Part shown: positions 28,130 to 32,704 of the stretch, one piece after another
Position numbering within the stretch: position 1 is the stretch's first letter
How the letters are laid out: each line of letters opens with the position of its first letter
From: Oceanicaulis sp. BBD 1991-10
GTDB taxonomy: Bacteria > Pseudomonadota > Alphaproteobacteria > Caulobacterales > Maricaulaceae
DNA: 64,000 bases
Assembly: GCA_001657295.1 (NCBI GenBank)
Contig: LYSW01000025.1
Span: 1-64,000 of the forward strand
Direction of reading: 5' to 3'
Translations under genes and position numbers: made by a program
The notes under the pieces: model-generated
What the model was told of the DNA's origin: nothing
Database searches by the model: none
What the model saw: only the letters and a program-made list of their open reading frames with translations

Positions 28130-30073
28130 ATGGCCGACGCGATCATCGAGACGCCGGACAATTTCGCGGACGCCCGGATCAACGCCGAGCGTTATCAGGC
28201 GATGTATCGCCGCTCCCTCCTGGAGCCGGACGCCTTCTGGCGCGACGAGATGCGGCGCGTCGACTGGATCACTGAGCCGACGAAGATTTCAGACGTCTCG
28301 TTCGCCAAGGATGATCTGCACATTCGCTGGTTTGAGGACGGGGTTCTTAATGTCAGCGCCAATTGCATCGACCGCCACCTGCCCGAGCGCGCCAACAAGG
28401 TCGCCATTTTGTGGGAAGGCGATAATCCGGCCTATCACCACGCCATCACCTACGCCCAGCTGTTCAACCATGTCTGCCGCTTCGCCAACGAGCTCAAAGC
28501 CATCGGCGTGACAAAGGGCGACCGGGTCACGCTCTACATGCCGATGATCCCGGAGGCGGCCTACGCCATGCTGGCCTGTGCGCGCATCGGCGCGGTGCAT
28601 TCAGTGGTCTTCGGCGGGTTTTCACCCGAGGCGCTGGCCGGCCGGCTCACCGATTGTCAAAGCGAATTCATCGTCACCGCCGATCAGGGCGTGCGCGGCG
28701 GCAAAGGCGTGCCTTTAAAAGCCAATGTGGACAAGGCGATCGAGATCGCCGGCGGGGTCAAGGCCGTGCTTTGCATCCGCCACACGGGCGCCGAGATCGG
28801 CTGGGTGGAGGGCCGGGACCATTGGCACCATGAATTGGCGTTGACCGTCGACGCCCACTGCGCGCCGGAGCCGATGAAGGCGGAAGATCCGCTCTTCATC
28901 CTGTATACGTCGGGCTCCACCGGAAAGCCCAAGGGCGTGCTGCACACCACGGGCGGCTATCTGGTCTGGGCCTCGATGACGTGTGACTACACCTTCGATC
29001 TTAAAGATAGCGACGTCTTCTGGTGCACGGCCGATGTCGGCTGGGTCACCGGCCACAGCTATATCGTCTACGGCCCGCTGGCCAACGGCGCGACGACGCT
29101 GATGTTTGAAGGCGTGCCCACCTATCCGGGCCCGGACCGCTTCTGGCGCATCGTCGCCAAGCATAAGGTGACGACGCTTTACACCGCGCCGACCGCGATC
29201 CGCGCTCTGATGCGCGAAGGCGAGGCGCCGGTGAAACGGCACGACCGCTCGTCGCTGCGCCTTCTGGGCACGGTGGGCGAACCGATCAATCCGGAGGCCT
29301 GGCGCTGGTATCATGAGGTGGTGGGGGAGACGCGCTGCCCCATCGTGGACACATGGTGGCAGACCGAGACCGGCGGCCATCTCATCACGCCCTTGCCCGG
29401 CGCCCATGGCCTCAAGCCCGGCTCGGCGAGCTTTCCGATGTTCGGCATCCGCCCGGCCTTGGTGGATGCTGAGGGCAAGCGCCTGCCCGATGAAGGCGAG
29501 GTGGAAGGCAATCTGGTGCTTCTGGGCAGCTGGCCCGGCCAGATGCGCACGGTGTACGGCGACCATCAGCGCTTCATCGACACCTATTTCTCCACTTATG
29601 AGGGCATGTATTTCACCGGCGACGGCGCCCGGCGCGACAGGGATGGCTATTGGTGGATCACCGGCCGGGTGGACGATGTGCTCAACGTCTCCGGTCACCG
29701 CCTCGGCACGGCGGAGATCGAAAGCGCCCTGGTCGCCCATGAGCTGGTCGCGGAAGCCGCGGTGGTGGGCTATCCGCACGATATCAAAGGCCAGGGCATC
29801 TATTGCTTCGTGACTCTGGTCGCCGGGCTGGAGCCGACGGACCAGACCGCCAAGAATCTTAAAGCCCATGTCCGCCAGGAGATCGGACCGGTCGCCACGC
29901 CGGACATCCTCCAATTCGCACCGGGCCTGCCCAAAACCCGTTCCGGCAAGATCATGCGCCGCATCCTGCGCAAGATTGCAGAGGGCGAGTTCGACAAGCT
30001 GGGCGATGTCTCAACCCTGGCCGACCCGGGTGTCGTCGACGAATTGATCGCAGGGCGCAAAGCCGCGGGGTGA
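28130..30073 (+). CDS. acsA: acetyl-coenzyme A synthetase
   Basis: The 647-residue enzyme activates acetate to acetyl-CoA via acetyl-AMP. Seen: the adenylate-forming P-loop [81 protein letters not shown] and the C-terminal [17 protein letters not shown], whose lysine is the known reversible acetylation site. Length is typical for Acs. A strong GGAGGA ribosome site precedes the ATG. It follows no operon partner; the three-gene cassette starts 66 bp downstream. Confidence 0.96.
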
Positions 30074-30139
30074 GCTGAGAATACGACCTGTGATTTAATA
30101 CTGGATTGACGTTTCACCCTGTGTTTGCATCATGGGGGC

Positions 30140-30538
30140 ATGCCTGGTTCCGGTCCTGATCCGAAAGACGTTCTGGTCAGTCCGCTGGCGGACCTGATCC
30201 GCGAGACCGGGGTCGCCGTGGCCGAAGCGCATGGCGCCCTAGGGGCGGCTAATCTGGAGCTGGTCCGGAACACGCCTGATGAGCTCAAGGTTCTGGGCTG
30301 GACGCCTGCCTGGTTCGAGCTGGCGGAGGTGGAGGCCGAGATCAGCCTCGCCTTCCATGTAGAGGAAAGCCAAGCCAGCGAGTCCGGAGGCAAGCGCCGC
30401 TGGCGGCTGCTTGCAGCCCCGCACAACGCCAAATACCAGAACGCCTTCAAGTATTCCGCAGAGGGCCGCAGCAAGGTCACGGTGAAATTCGCCGCGGCGC
30501 CGCCGCCGACCGCACTACAGCCGGACACGGAGGATTAA
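30140..30538 (+). CDS. cassette protein A, DUF2589-like core, unknown function
   Basis: The 132-residue protein has an N-terminal helix (VSPLADLIRETGVAVAEAHGAL), then LGWTPAWFELAEVEAEISLAF and a C-terminal KYSAEGRSKVTVKFAAAPPP. These three blocks align in order with protein C of the same cluster (NVPFAEMVQKLALAVAEG, LGFYPSFYQVTTAEVEVKMAIS, KYSYSQEGSSRLYFKMAPTPPP), so the two are paralogues. The pattern resembles DUF2589, from memory and without a search. A TTGACG at 30106 could be the -35 of a promoter starting close to ATG 30140; a TTG at 30125 is an alternative start. It heads a same-strand three-gene unit. Confidence 0.6.
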   Translation: MPGSGPDPKDVLVSPLADLIRETGVAVAEAHGALGAANLELVRNTPDELKVLGWTPAWFELAEVEAEISLAFHVEESQASESGGKRRWRLLAAPHNAKYQNAFKYSAEGRSKVTVKFAAAPPPTALQPDTED

Positions 30539-30541
30539 GCG

Positions 30542-31345
30542 ATGGCGCGCCGGCCCAGACCTCCGACTCTGACCAATTTGACGGCGGCGCGCGACCTCAT
30601 CTCCATCAATCCGGAGGCGATCCCGGACCCGCGCGAGCGGCAACGGTTCGAATTGCTGCAGGGCCAGTTGCGCGCCCAGGCCGTGGAGGCGGAGAAATCG
30701 CTCAGGGAGCTTGACCGCCAGAAGGCCCAGAGCGACCAACTGCGCAAGGATCTGACCGCCGCGCGGCGCGAAGCGCGAACCGCGGGCGACCGCGCCGCCG
30801 CCCTGTCCGCCCAGGTCGCGCAATCGCGGACCCTGAACCGGGAGCTGGATCAGGTTCGCCGGCAGAACACCCAGCTTCAGCGCACGATCGAGACGCGCGA
30901 CGCCTCCATCACGCAGCTGCAGTCCGAGCGTCGCGATCTCGATGTGCGGATCGCCGCCTTGCAGGCCGGCGCGGAGCGCGTGGCGGTTCTCGATCGCGAT
31001 CTCGCCGCGCTTCGCGCCGATCTGGCGGCCCGCGACGCTCTGATCGAAACCCTTCAGGAACAGGCGCACGCCCCAGGCGCGGCGCAGGCTGGAGCTACGA
31101 AAGAGCCCAAGGCGCTGATCGAGATGCTGCACCGGGACCTGACCGAGTTGAGCGCTGCGGAAGGCGGCGCCTTCGCTCTCGATGATGTGGAGATCGATCT
31201 TGTCGCCCCGCTCGATGTGGAGAGCGACCGGGCGGTGATGCGCTTCAATCCCGCCGCCCTGAGCGCGCCGGAAGGCGCGTCGCGCATACGATTTCGTCTC
31301 ACCCGCAATGCGCAGATCCGCGCCACGGATGAGGAGGCGGATTAA
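30542..31345 (+). CDS. cassette protein B, coiled coil plus shared core, unknown function
   Basis: The 267-residue protein is a long coiled coil from about 35 to 185, rich in Arg, Glu, Gln and Leu heptads (for example ELDQVRRQNTQLQRTIETRD). A short C-terminal domain follows with FALDDVEIDLVAPLDVESD and ASRIRFRLTRNAQI. That end mirrors the strand pairs of proteins A and C (FELAEVEAEISLAF and GRSKVTVKF). It starts 3 bp after gene A stops, with GGAGG inside the end of gene A. No signal peptide or membrane segment is seen, so it is likely a cytoplasmic scaffold; function is unknown. Confidence 0.62.
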   Translation: MARRPRPPTLTNLTAARDLISINPEAIPDPRERQRFELLQGQLRAQAVEAEKSLRELDRQKAQSDQLRKDLTAARREARTAGDRAAALSAQVAQSRTLNRELDQVRRQNTQLQRTIETRDASITQLQSERRDLDVRIAALQAGAERVAVLDRDLAALRADLAARDALIETLQEQAHAPGAAQAGATKEPKALIEMLHRDLTELSAAEGGAFALDDVEIDLVAPLDVESDRAVMRFNPAALSAPEGASRIRFRLTRNAQIRATDEEAD

Positions 31346-31347
31346 CC

Positions 31348-31363
31348 GGCCGCGTCCGCGGCC
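31348..31363 (+). promoter_or_regulatory. stem-loop between cassette genes B and C
   Basis: GGCCGCG and CGCGGCC face each other across 2 bases in the 40-bp gap. It has no T run. It could slow decay or limit read-through and so change the ratio of protein C to A and B. Confidence 0.3.
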
Positions 31364-31385
31364 ACGACGCTGAAAGGAGCCCCCC

Positions 31386-31910
31386 ATGAGCGTTGGACAG
31401 GAACTCTTAAACGTACCTTTCGCGGAGATGGTGCAGAAGCTTGCGCTCGCCGTGGCGGAAGGCCAGACCAAGCTGGACACCAACTCCACCGAGGTCGCCA
31501 AATTCATGGCGACGACAGACATCAAGCTGCCCGGCATCAAGACGTCGGATCCGGATGTCACCGTGCCGCTGATCGCCCTGGGATTTTATCCCAGCTTTTA
31601 TCAGGTCACGACCGCCGAGGTTGAAGTGAAGATGGCGATCTCCATGACCAAGACTCGGGAGACCAGCGCGTCGCTGAGCGTGAAAGGCGGATGGGGTCCC
31701 GTCTCCGCGCAGGTGAATGCGTCCTACGCGTCGAAATACAGCTATAGCCAGGAAGGCTCTTCGCGCCTGTATTTCAAAATGGCGCCCACGCCGCCGCCGG
31801 CCTTGCTGGAAGCCTATGTCCAGGCCCTGATCGAAGAGCGCAAAAAGCCATTGGAGCAGGCGATCCCGGAAGACAATCCAGCACCGGCCCCAAGCCCGGC
31901 GCCGAACTGA
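31386..31910 (+). CDS. cassette protein C, DUF2589-like, unknown function
   Basis: The 174-residue protein begins SVGQELLNVPFAEMVQKLAL, then VTVPLIALGFYPSFYQVTTA, EVEVKMAISMTKT, a Ser/Thr/Gly-rich beta region and SRLYFKMAPTPPPALLEAYVQAL, ending in a Pro/Ala-rich tail. The order VPL, hydrophobic-P, EVEVKM and the beginning GQEL...PF strongly recall DUF2589 proteins, a family with no known function. It is preceded by an AAAGGAG ribosome site and follows gene B by 40 bp. Paralogy with protein A is visible by eye. Confidence 0.65.
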   Translation: MSVGQELLNVPFAEMVQKLALAVAEGQTKLDTNSTEVAKFMATTDIKLPGIKTSDPDVTVPLIALGFYPSFYQVTTAEVEVKMAISMTKTRETSASLSVKGGWGPVSAQVNASYASKYSYSQEGSSRLYFKMAPTPPPALLEAYVQALIEERKKPLEQAIPEDNPAPAPSPAPN

Positions 31911-32038
31911 TCGTAACCCGGAAGGCCGCGTAAAACCCCAATTATTGCGGGCGCTATTGCGCCGCAGCAAATCATGTTGCATGCGCGAAGAAACAGACTA
32001 TCTACCGCGACGAAATCGATTCGCCGCGGAGCTTTGCT

Positions 32039-32704
32039 GTGCCATTCATTCCTTATGCTGTCGGCGCCTTCATGCTGCTGCCTTTCGCCATCTGGGCGGG
32101 GCTTTTCATGCTGTTTCCGGGGCCCAAGCCCGGCATTACGGACTCTCCGATGATTGCGGCGCTGGTGGCGGTGTCTCTGCCGTTGGCGCTGTTTCATTAC
32201 ATCGCGGCGCTGGGCTATATCGCCAATTCCATGGCGGGCCGCGCGGGTGAGGAATTGCCGGTCTGGCGTCCGGCGCGCCTTCTCCAGCGCGCCATGGCGC
32301 CGCTCAGCGCGATGCTGGCGCTCGCCGCGATGAGCGCGCTTCACGTGATCGGCGAGAGCCTGTTCGCGGTCGCCGCCGTGGGCGCGGCGGGCCTGTTCAT
32401 GTCGGCGGTTATGGCGGTGGCCCGCCGACCGCGCCGCAGCGCGGCCGTGATGGCCGCGCCGGGTCAATGGGTGCGACGGGGCGTTTATGCGCTCAGCACG
32501 GCGGTCACCCGGCTGCCGGTCATCGGCCGCTTCTGGCGCGAGCTGGCGGCCAATCCCGACCGCGCCGCGCCGCTGGTGCTGATCAACACCGCCCTGGGCC
32601 TGGCCTTGATCGCGGTCGTGTTCGGTTTCTCGGCCCTGGTCGTGCCCGCGATGATCGCGGCGCCGCTGATCTTCTTCCTGATGATGAGCCTGGCGGCGGA
32701 CTGA
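32039..32704 (+). CDS. hypothetical multi-pass membrane protein
   Basis: The 221-residue protein has about five hydrophobic segments: 5-27, 40-64, 88-110, 112-128 and 188-220, with a basic loop [11 protein letters not shown] between the fourth and fifth. No enzyme motif is seen. The start is GTG 32039; the first ATG is well inside the first helix. The 128 bp upstream hold an AT-rich stretch and a weak hairpin but no clear promoter. It does not seem part of the DUF2589-like cassette. Confidence 0.6.
   Translation: MPFIPYAVGAFMLLPFAIWAGLFMLFPGPKPGITDSPMIAALVAVSLPLALFHYIAALGYIANSMAGRAGEELPVWRPARLLQRAMAPLSAMLALAAMSALHVIGESLFAVAAVGAAGLFMSAVMAVARRPRRSAAVMAAPGQWVRRGVYALSTAVTRLPVIGRFWRELAANPDRAAPLVLINTALGLALIAVVFGFSALVVPAMIAAPLIFFLMMSLAAD

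What the first reader, a model, noticed from the sequence alone, without database searches (positions are those of the whole stretch)
30106..31910. Three-gene cassette of unknown function with one shared core in all three products
Proteins A, B and C are encoded in one direction with 3- and 40-bp gaps. Seen: A and C align in order over three blocks (a helix with P-[LF]-A-x-x-[IV]; LG[WF]xP...EVE; KYS.EG.S...PPP). The C-terminal part of B repeats the EVE/strand pattern (FELAEVEAEISL against FALDDVEIDL) after a long coiled coil. This implies gene duplication and a complex in which the coiled coil links related subunits. Family knowledge: C resembles DUF2589, which has no assigned function. The unit sits alone between acsA and an unrelated membrane protein, has its own promoter-like TTGACG, and no signal peptides, so it is probably a cytoplasmic assembly.
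Basis: partly seen in the sequence, partly recalled or inferred. Interest (0 to 1): 0.7.

Follow-up and report, generated by a model that had tools for sequence, protein, structure and literature searches.

The report
Undescribed three-gene, shared-core protein assembly
Three small neighbouring bacterial genes of unknown function turn out to be parts of one travelling unit, found together in scattered bacteria and archaea, whose proteins share (two surely, the third probably) one ancestral building block and may assemble into a structure inside the cell.

Summary
A (best start ATG 30140), B and C lie in one direction with 3- and 40-bp gaps. A and C are homologues: profile comparison 99.4%, E 3e-21. 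B's C-terminal domain resembles A's core (70%; score 29.9 against at most 13.7 in 60 shuffles); B against C directly is not significant. C falls below the DUF2589 cut-off (14 against 23 bits) but is a distant relative by profile.

The genes recur together: A+B+C are adjacent in 23 of the 25 fetched loci with a window-type C, bacterial and archaeal. In 248 genomes of a Ruegeria species' family, C and a separate A gene occur in the same 5; 3 of these 5 also have a detectable B. Three congeners have the empty site between acsA and the membrane gene.

Models give all three a helix followed by hairpin-like strands, 27-28 residues long in C; B adds a ~147-residue coiled coil. Best reading: a mobile, cytoplasmic hetero-oligomeric assembly built on a shared helix-hairpin core. 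Assembly and function are inferred, not shown.

The parts
30106..30133 (+). promoter-like site (TTGACG, 16 nt, CATCAT)
   Evidence: 9 of 12 consensus matches, the only one in 29900-32150; 0.3 expected. Weak
30140..30538 (+). gene A, 132 aa, short form of the A family
   Evidence: one search gives 30125 (TTG) as longest start; ATG 30140 preferred. A-family alignment A2, homologous to C
30185..30271 (+). A: predicted helix (residues 16-44)
   Evidence: AF2 of A-B read-through
30326..30493 (+). A: predicted strands (residues 63-77, 87-94, 111-118), a broken hairpin
   Evidence: AF2, (block pLDDT about 65-82); first and last strand align with C's hairpin
30542..31345 (+). gene B, 267 aa: long coiled coil plus C-terminal A-like core
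   Evidence: B-family alignment A3; profile map
30629..31069 (+). B: predicted coiled coil, about 147 residues
   Evidence: AF2 helix 164-310 of the read-through chain = B 30-176, block pLDDT 78-95
31106..31306 (+). B: C-terminal core, helix 189-206, then strands, first 211-219 and last 248-255
   Evidence: AF2, block pLDDT about 50-70; matched to the A core by profile
31386..31910 (+). gene C, 174 aa, distant relative of DUF2589
   Evidence: (below cut-off)
31419..31514 (+). C: long N-terminal helix (residues 12-43), same length in all 39 aligned rows
   Evidence: AF2; length count
31596..31790 (+). C: long beta hairpin, strands 71-98 and 109-135, GGWGP at the tip
   Evidence: AF2 (residues 91-120 under pLDDT 50); tip length 16-52 residues in the 39 rows
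31800..31862 (+). C: C-terminal helix (residues 139-159)
   Evidence: AF2
31903..31930 (+). possible degenerate copy of the acsA 3' end (30040-30067) at the right junction of the cassette
   Evidence: 21 of 28 bases identical, ungapped; 6 of 2963 random window segments score as high. Against congeners' acsA ends: G945 0 of 2963, but G168 204, G034 and G950 1500 of 2963

Best explanation
A, B and C are subunits of one cytoplasmic hetero-oligomeric assembly that moves between genomes as a three-gene unit. SHOWN: A and C are homologues, B's C-terminal domain resembles A's core, and the three genes are kept side by side in bacterial and archaeal loci. PREDICTED: each has a core of one helix followed by hairpin-like strands, very long in C, and B carries about 147 residues of coiled coil. 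INFERRED: the related cores pack side by side, hairpin against hairpin, as pseudo-equivalent subunits of a ring, collar or tube; C, the best conserved, is the main subunit, A a related cap or minor subunit, and B anchors by its own small core and projects the coiled coil as stalk, spacer or bundling arm. Hairpin tips and protein ends act as docking places where larger relatives carry other domains (OmpA-like, PASTA, DUF4332/HhH). What the assembly does for the cell is not known; an envelope-facing or stress-related scaffold is a guess.
For: A-C homology. B core to A core. A, B, C adjacent on one strand in 23 of 25 loci with window-type C: order A-B-C in 20, C-A-B in 3 archaeal loci; two more A-B-C units (L092, L094). 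C and a separate A gene in the same 5 of 248 genomes. One A/C split in the tree, 98/78. Helix then strands in all three models. Helix and base of strand 1 have one length in all 39 C rows while the hairpin tip varies from 16 to 52 residues. In L063 a 596-aa relative has helix and first strand at 20-91 and an OmpA domain (E 1e-15) further on, and its end reads like the last strand (by eye). Long A forms carry DUF4332 (9 of 16 rows) and PASTA (8 of 16). No transmembrane-like stretch.
Against: No interface, stoichiometry or expression was measured or predicted. B-C direct comparison is not significant. The outer part of C's hairpin has pLDDT under 50, pTM 0.57; the A-B model has pTM 0.30 and its B core block pLDDT about 50-70. 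No PDB chain matches C at Foldseek E 0.001 or better, and no VIA-align row reaches Z 5. Four large clusters (L063, L064, L091, L093) have several cores but no B that my profile detects. The 13 loci L029-L041, of canonical DUF2589 kind, have no A or B. The B rows of my profile were picked by position next to C in 14 of the 23 loci, so only the other 9 are an independent test of B; all 9 matched (E 6e-7 or better), several being near relatives of the picked ones.
Confidence: 0.45

Rival explanations
1. C (with A) is a pore- or channel-forming protein: the long hairpins of several subunits form a transmembrane beta barrel, and B regulates or tethers it.
For: Among the first weak Foldseek rows of C are stem hairpins of beta-barrel pores (anthrax protective antigen, CDTb; E 0.025 and worse); best VIA row lysenin, Z 3.6. 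Strand alternation is above shuffles in the base of strand 1 and the tip half of strand 2 (mean z 1.2 and 1.8 in 17 C1 rows). A second protein of the own genome (L003) shares the motif GWGPVSA of C's hairpin tip.
Against: None of these matches is significant; over the full strands alternation is no better than shuffles (mean z 0.6 and -0.3); no export signal seen by eye; B and the C2 paralogues are not explained.
Confidence: 0.2
2. An assembly in the cell-envelope or lysis context: built in the cytoplasm, it acts on or docks to the wall, with peptidoglycan-related domains as anchors.
For: PASTA in long A forms (8 of 16 rows), OmpA domain in L063, Amidase_2 proteins near the unit in L018 and L019, and in L010 a protein weakly like PG_binding_3 and Peptidase_M15_4, below both cut-offs.
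Against: Only chosen neighbours were scanned with Pfam, and with these three as queries no further relative was found among all ORFs of the 77 loci then held. PASTA also occurs in an archaeal B (L024), whose owner should have no murein (general knowledge). The minimal alphaproteobacterial units, this one included, have no such gene that I noticed.
Confidence: 0.15
3. A soluble cytosolic scaffold or filament with a housekeeping or metabolic role, not a closed ring or tube.
For: Long coiled coil of B; a TPR-type family beside the long clusters in 9 loci and a second in 7 (the two L018 members scanned with Pfam are TPR); DUF2589-related genes AF0414-AF0417 of Archaeoglobus fulgidus were reported up-regulated on lactate (PMC3949148, one passage read).
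Against: The expression report concerns DUF2589-type genes whose relation to A-B-C I could not check; no partner is constant beyond A, B and C.
Confidence: 0.15
4. A phage-derived or anti-phage unit.
For: Sporadic spread (about 1.5-5% of the genomes in six samples); insertion at a site where a congener has other DNA; one BFVD model of a viral-library protein matches C's model (A0A516MP19, E 1.5e-6, TM 0.58).
Against: No phage record at E 0.01; no relative in four scans of viral contigs (these find mainly close relatives); PADLOC hits lie essentially in B's coiled coil; PHROGs gives nothing convincing for A and C.
Confidence: 0.05

Closest known systems
DUF2589 (Pfam PF11655) and its own cassettes (L029-L036, L040, L041)
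   Same: C residues 1-150 align by profile (96.7%, E 4e-10); GGWGP in the same alignment place; canonical members also sit in a three-gene cassette
   Different: window C is below the Pfam cut-off; the partners are other proteins, one of about 225 aa and one of about 190-210 aa, with no A or B
FliF RBM3 / beta collar of the flagellar MS ring
   Same: weak, nearly full-length Foldseek rows (E 0.03-0.1): helices plus an upright hairpin; that FliF forms a large collar is general knowledge (papers seen as listing only)
   Different: not significant (VIA Z 2.4-3.4, rmsd about 9-13); FliF is a membrane protein, A, B and C show no transmembrane stretch
stem hairpins of beta-barrel pore formers (aerolysin, lysenin, protective-antigen type)
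   Same: long beta hairpin that forms a barrel by oligomerisation (general knowledge)
   Different: match confined to the hairpin, E 0.025 or worse; no sign of secretion; alternation incomplete

Membership tests
DUF2589 (PF11655) | score at or above Pfam's gathering cut-off (23 bits) | tested here: not met
   14.0 bits, E 0.065 for window C; 9 of 39 aligned C rows match at E 0.01, the window's not
DUF2589 superfamily (wider, profile level) | profile-profile similarity over most of the domain | tested here: met
   96.7%, E 4.4e-10, 154 columns; window C scores 42 bits with a model built from nine canonical rows
FliF RBM3-type ring-building motif | significant structural match | tested here: inconclusive
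   Foldseek E 0.03-0.1; VIA Z 2.4-3.4
FliF RBM3-type ring-building motif | forms closed rings | not testable with these tools
   no multimer prediction, no experiment
beta-barrel pore-forming proteins | significant structural match | tested here: inconclusive
   best Foldseek row E 0.025, best VIA row Z 3.6
beta-barrel pore-forming proteins | amphipathic alternation along both hairpin strands | tested here: inconclusive
   above shuffles in part of each strand, not over the full strands
known anti-phage systems (PADLOC) | match of a non-coiled-coil part to a defence model | tested here: not met
   A and C none at E 0.01; B eight rows within residues 30-201, best E 2e-4
phage structural proteins (PHROGs) | convincing family match | tested here: not met
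   best E 0.035 for C, 0.19 for A; B best 0.0055, rows within residues 21-185

The most novel reading that the evidence does not exclude
A class of cytoplasmic machine not described before, shared by bacteria and archaea: a ring, collar or tube built from several paralogous helix-plus-long-hairpin subunits, in which one subunit type sends out a coiled coil and the hairpin tips and ends carry exchangeable domains. The window holds its minimal three-gene form.
Probability: 0.35. Interest if true: 0.8.

Novelty: categorically new. Interest (0 to 1): 0.6.

Why it matters
If the proteins assemble, this is a small, self-contained structure shared across domains, with no described counterpart that I found, in a form (three short soluble proteins) that can be expressed and imaged at once. 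Novelty rests on: no Pfam or NCBIfam family for A or for B's core; DUF2589 itself named in one paper of the open library and PF11655 in none; a search of six further identifiers (one InterPro number recalled) held 24 papers, of which the 10 listed are on other subjects and the rest were not seen; no significant fold match for C. It is a statement about these libraries, not about all literature.

Tried and rejected
Phage origin: four viral-contig scans and a tblastn of phages found no relative; plasmids gave one record, Sphaerotilus, with C and a second C-like gene followed by a short core-like and a coiled-coil protein, the last two seen by eye. Defence: PADLOC gave only coiled-coil matches of B. 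Solved structures by sequence: none for C; A and B were not searched there. Recurrent neighbours (27 loci): besides A, B, C and C2, two TPR-type families (9 and 7 loci), a low-complexity protein (L019-L021) and an 80-aa archaeal protein (L024, L027, L028) recur; the rest of the listed families are shared flanks of close relatives; the TPR-type families were not found in L004-L009 and L015. Amphipathic hairpin as proof of a membrane barrel: tested, mixed, not used. The first A-B profile comparison (94%) was inflated by PASTA repeats of archaeal B proteins and was redone on cores. A core against canonical DUF2589: not significant. Counts are conditional on C, because C found the loci; the A search is the independent check, in one family only. 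The A profile also matches C genes, so I counted a genome only for a hit at the place of a separate A gene. L023 (two C-like genes, B only at E 3e-3) and L025 (contig ends just after C) are the two misses of 25. Some of the 23 loci are close relatives (for example L005, L006, L015; L020, L021), and many come from metagenome bins, whose organism names may be wrong.

Full report
WHAT IS THERE. Three genes run on the + strand: A (30125 or, better, ATG 30140 to 30538), B (30542-31345) and C (31386-31910), with gaps of 3 and 40 bp. A promoter-like TTGACG/CATCAT pair lies at 30106-30133; its -10 ends 6 nt before ATG 30140, so a leaderless message is possible (inference). None of the three has a hydrophobic stretch of transmembrane strength.

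SHARED CORE. In the own genome, C finds A by tblastn at E 7e-9. Alignments were made of 39 C rows (A1), 16 A rows (A2) and 15 B rows (A3). Profile comparison A1-A2 gives 99.1%, E 1e-18; trimmed to cores 99.4%, E 3e-21, while 40 controls (one reversed, 39 shuffled) reach at most 22%, E 9e-4. For B, the first comparison with A (94%) was partly due to PASTA repeats, so it was redone on cores: 47%, score 27.4 against at most 16.1 in 40 controls, and 70%, score 29.9 with 34 A and 26 B rows against at most 13.7 in 60 column shuffles. B against C directly is not significant (1.4% and 1.2%; scores 16.4 and 15.5 against shuffle maxima of 15.7 and 13.4). So B is tied to the others through A only, at moderate strength.

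DUF2589. Window C scores 14.0 bits with PF11655, cut-off 23. Of the 39 C rows 9 match PF11655 at E 0.01, the window's not among them (the call does not name the nine). Splitting the rows by my own reading into 30 window-type and 9 canonical ones (L029-L031, L033-L035, L039-L041), profile comparison gives 96.7%, E 4e-10. C is therefore a distant relative, not a member by Pfam's rule. A's core against the canonical nine is not significant (1.3%). A matches nothing in Pfam or NCBIfam at E 1; B's matches are coiled-coil-type rows.

RECURRENCE. A scan of genome contigs with C gave 38 loci, L004-L041. Profiles of the A, B and C cores were run on the ORFs of all loci then held. Of the 25 loci with a window-type C (L004-L028), 23 have A, B and C side by side on one strand: A-B-C in 20, C-A-B in three archaeal loci. 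The misses are L023 (two C-like genes, weak B) and L025 (contig ends after C). The other 13 loci, L029-L041, are of the canonical DUF2589 kind and have neither A nor B. In 12 of the 23 a second C-like gene (C2) follows C. The rows of the B profile had been chosen by position in 14 of the 23 loci, so B is an independent finding only in the other 9; all 9 matched at E 6e-7 or better, several being close relatives of chosen ones. The loci include Alphaproteobacteria, Bacillota, Fibrobacterota, Hydrogenedentota, Pelotalea (Geobacteraceae) and archaea (record titles, lineages); many are metagenome bins.

REVERSE TEST. In 248 genomes of the family of a Ruegeria species, itself included, C is in 5 at E 1e-15. 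The A profile at E 1e-6 hits the same 5, each also at the place of a separate A gene, and a sixth (G1146) only in the DUF4332 part of the long profile. Because A and C are homologous, the A profile also hits C genes, so the figure 1.3e-10 computed for a chance coincidence is not a fair probability; what counts is that a separate A gene is present in 5 of 5 and that no genome has an A core alone. B is detected in 3 of these 5 (G955, G1011, G1042) and not in the two large clusters (G1010, G1040). Overall the C family is sporadic: 8 of 200 genomes of the own order at E 1e-5, 6 of 385 of the class and 8 of 398 of the phylum at E 1e-8, 7 of 146 in the class of Pelotalea and 3 of 150 in the family of L014 (Lachnospiraceae) at E 1e-15. 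These counts include distant DUF2589-type matches and the centre's own genome.

HISTORY. In an unrooted tree of 34 A and 39 C cores, A and C are the two sides of one branch (98/78; 98% of bootstrap trees), so the A/C split looks older than the spread. The tool warns of several long branches, the window's A among them. Window C falls with the Roseobacter group (93/96); window A does too, with poor support (83/45). Methanimicrococcus rows lie among Bacillota rows in the A half and with Fibrobacter, Lachnospiraceae and Methanomassiliicoccaceae rows in the C half, which points to transfer between domains unless bins are wrong. In three congeners, G034, G945 and G168, acsA and the membrane-protein gene are neighbours, with 108-126 bp between the aligned codons, and no A, B or C hit in the stretch. 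In G950 another 1.6-kb insert sits there. At the right junction of the cassette, 31903-31930 resembles the acsA 3' end 30040-30067 at 21 of 28 bases; 6 of 2963 random segments score as high. Against the acsA ends of congeners the same stretch does best with G945 (0 of 2963), but no better than chance with G034 and G950 (1500 of 2963 each) and weakly with G168 (204 of 2963). This suggests, without proving, insertion at the acsA 3' end with a short duplication; no integrase or transposase was sought.

STRUCTURE. AF2 of C with 39 rows: mean pLDDT 75, pTM 0.57; helix 12-43, short strands, a long hairpin 71-98/109-135, helix 139-159; residues 91-120 are below pLDDT 50. AF2 of A and B as one read-through chain: A has helix 16-44 and strands 63-77, 87-94, 111-118 with a short helix 97-103; B has a helix of 147 residues (block pLDDT 78-95), then helix 189-206 and strands of which the first is 211-219 and the last 248-255 in B numbering, at block pLDDT about 50-70; pTM 0.30, so relative placement means nothing. 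The order helix-then-strands is common to the three, but only C has the long unbroken hairpin. In the 39 C rows the helix and the base of strand 1 never change length, whereas the tip varies from 16 to 52 residues, the loop before strand 1 from 18 to 49 and strand 2 from 25 to 31. In L063 (own order) a 596-aa protein has helix and first strand at 20-91 and an OmpA domain at 277-360, and ends in what reads like the last strand (by eye): an insert of over 400 residues at the tip. Long A forms bear DUF4332 (9 of 16 rows) and PASTA (8 of 16); an archaeal B (L024) bears four PASTA stretches and DUF4332/HhH.

FOLD SEARCH. No PDB chain reaches E 0.001 with C; among the first weak rows are stem hairpins of pore formers and FliF RBM3; VIA-align gives no Z of 5 or more. 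In BFVD one model, A0A516MP19 (no name at hand), matches at E 1.5e-6, TM 0.58, but no related gene was found in phages or viral contigs. The A-B model was not put to a fold search.

MECHANISM. Shown: A-C homology, A-B core resemblance, kept neighbourhood, presence or absence at one site among congeners. Predicted: helix-plus-strands core in all three and a long coiled coil in B. Inferred: the cores pack as pseudo-equivalent subunits of a ring, collar or tube, with B's coiled coil projecting, and with tips and ends as docking places for other domains. Long hairpins that oligomerise into collars or barrels are known in FliF and in pore formers (general knowledge); the weak structural rows agree but are not evidence of kinship. 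A membrane pore is a live rival, weakened by incomplete alternation and by the lack of any export signal seen.

FUNCTION CLUES. Amidase_2 proteins near the unit in L018 and L019 and a weaker M15/PG-binding-like protein in L010 (ten chosen proteins scanned), TPR-type proteins in nine loci, and one report that DUF2589-related genes AF0414-AF0417 of Archaeoglobus fulgidus are up-regulated on lactate (PMC3949148; one passage read). None is decisive. The cellular role is open.

VERDICT. No described system matches in the libraries searched.

Noticed in passing
window 31903-31930 and 30040-30067: Possible degenerate 28-bp copy of the acsA 3' end at the right edge of the cassette (21 of 28 bases); congeners have an empty or otherwise filled site there.
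   Followed up: partly
L089 (G950), between acsA and the membrane gene: Another 1.6-kb insert at the same place, with ORFs of other kinds (one looks LytTR-like by eye), so the acsA 3' end may be an insertion spot.
   Followed up: no
L003:868-1839 (own genome, contig C19): 323-aa protein without a Pfam match at E 0.1 that shares the GWGPVSA motif of C's hairpin tip (phmmer E 1e-4), beside a protein weakly like Exo_endo_phos (22.6 bits, cut-off 24.5).
   Followed up: partly
L063, L064, L091, L093: Large clusters with five proteins that match the A or C core each, one of them with an OmpA insert in L063, plus core + Ig-like proteins (by eye) and no detectable B.
   Followed up: partly
L029-L036, L040, L041, L096: Canonical DUF2589 genes have their own conserved cassette: DUF2589, a protein of about 225 aa and one of about 190-210 aa, in distant phyla. 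The 225-aa protein resembles DUF2589 and the A core weakly (35%, 36%; scores 32.3 and 30.5 against maxima of 18.1 and 19.4 in 25 shuffles each), but not the window-type C rows (0.3%).
   Followed up: partly
L097: A Lachnospiraceae DUF2589 cassette is followed by genes that look, by eye, like a ricin-type lectin and cysteine peptidases; not tested with a library.
   Followed up: no
L024:3102-3344, L027, L028: An 80-aa protein (no Pfam match at E 0.001 for the L024 copy) follows B in the three archaeal loci.
   Followed up: no
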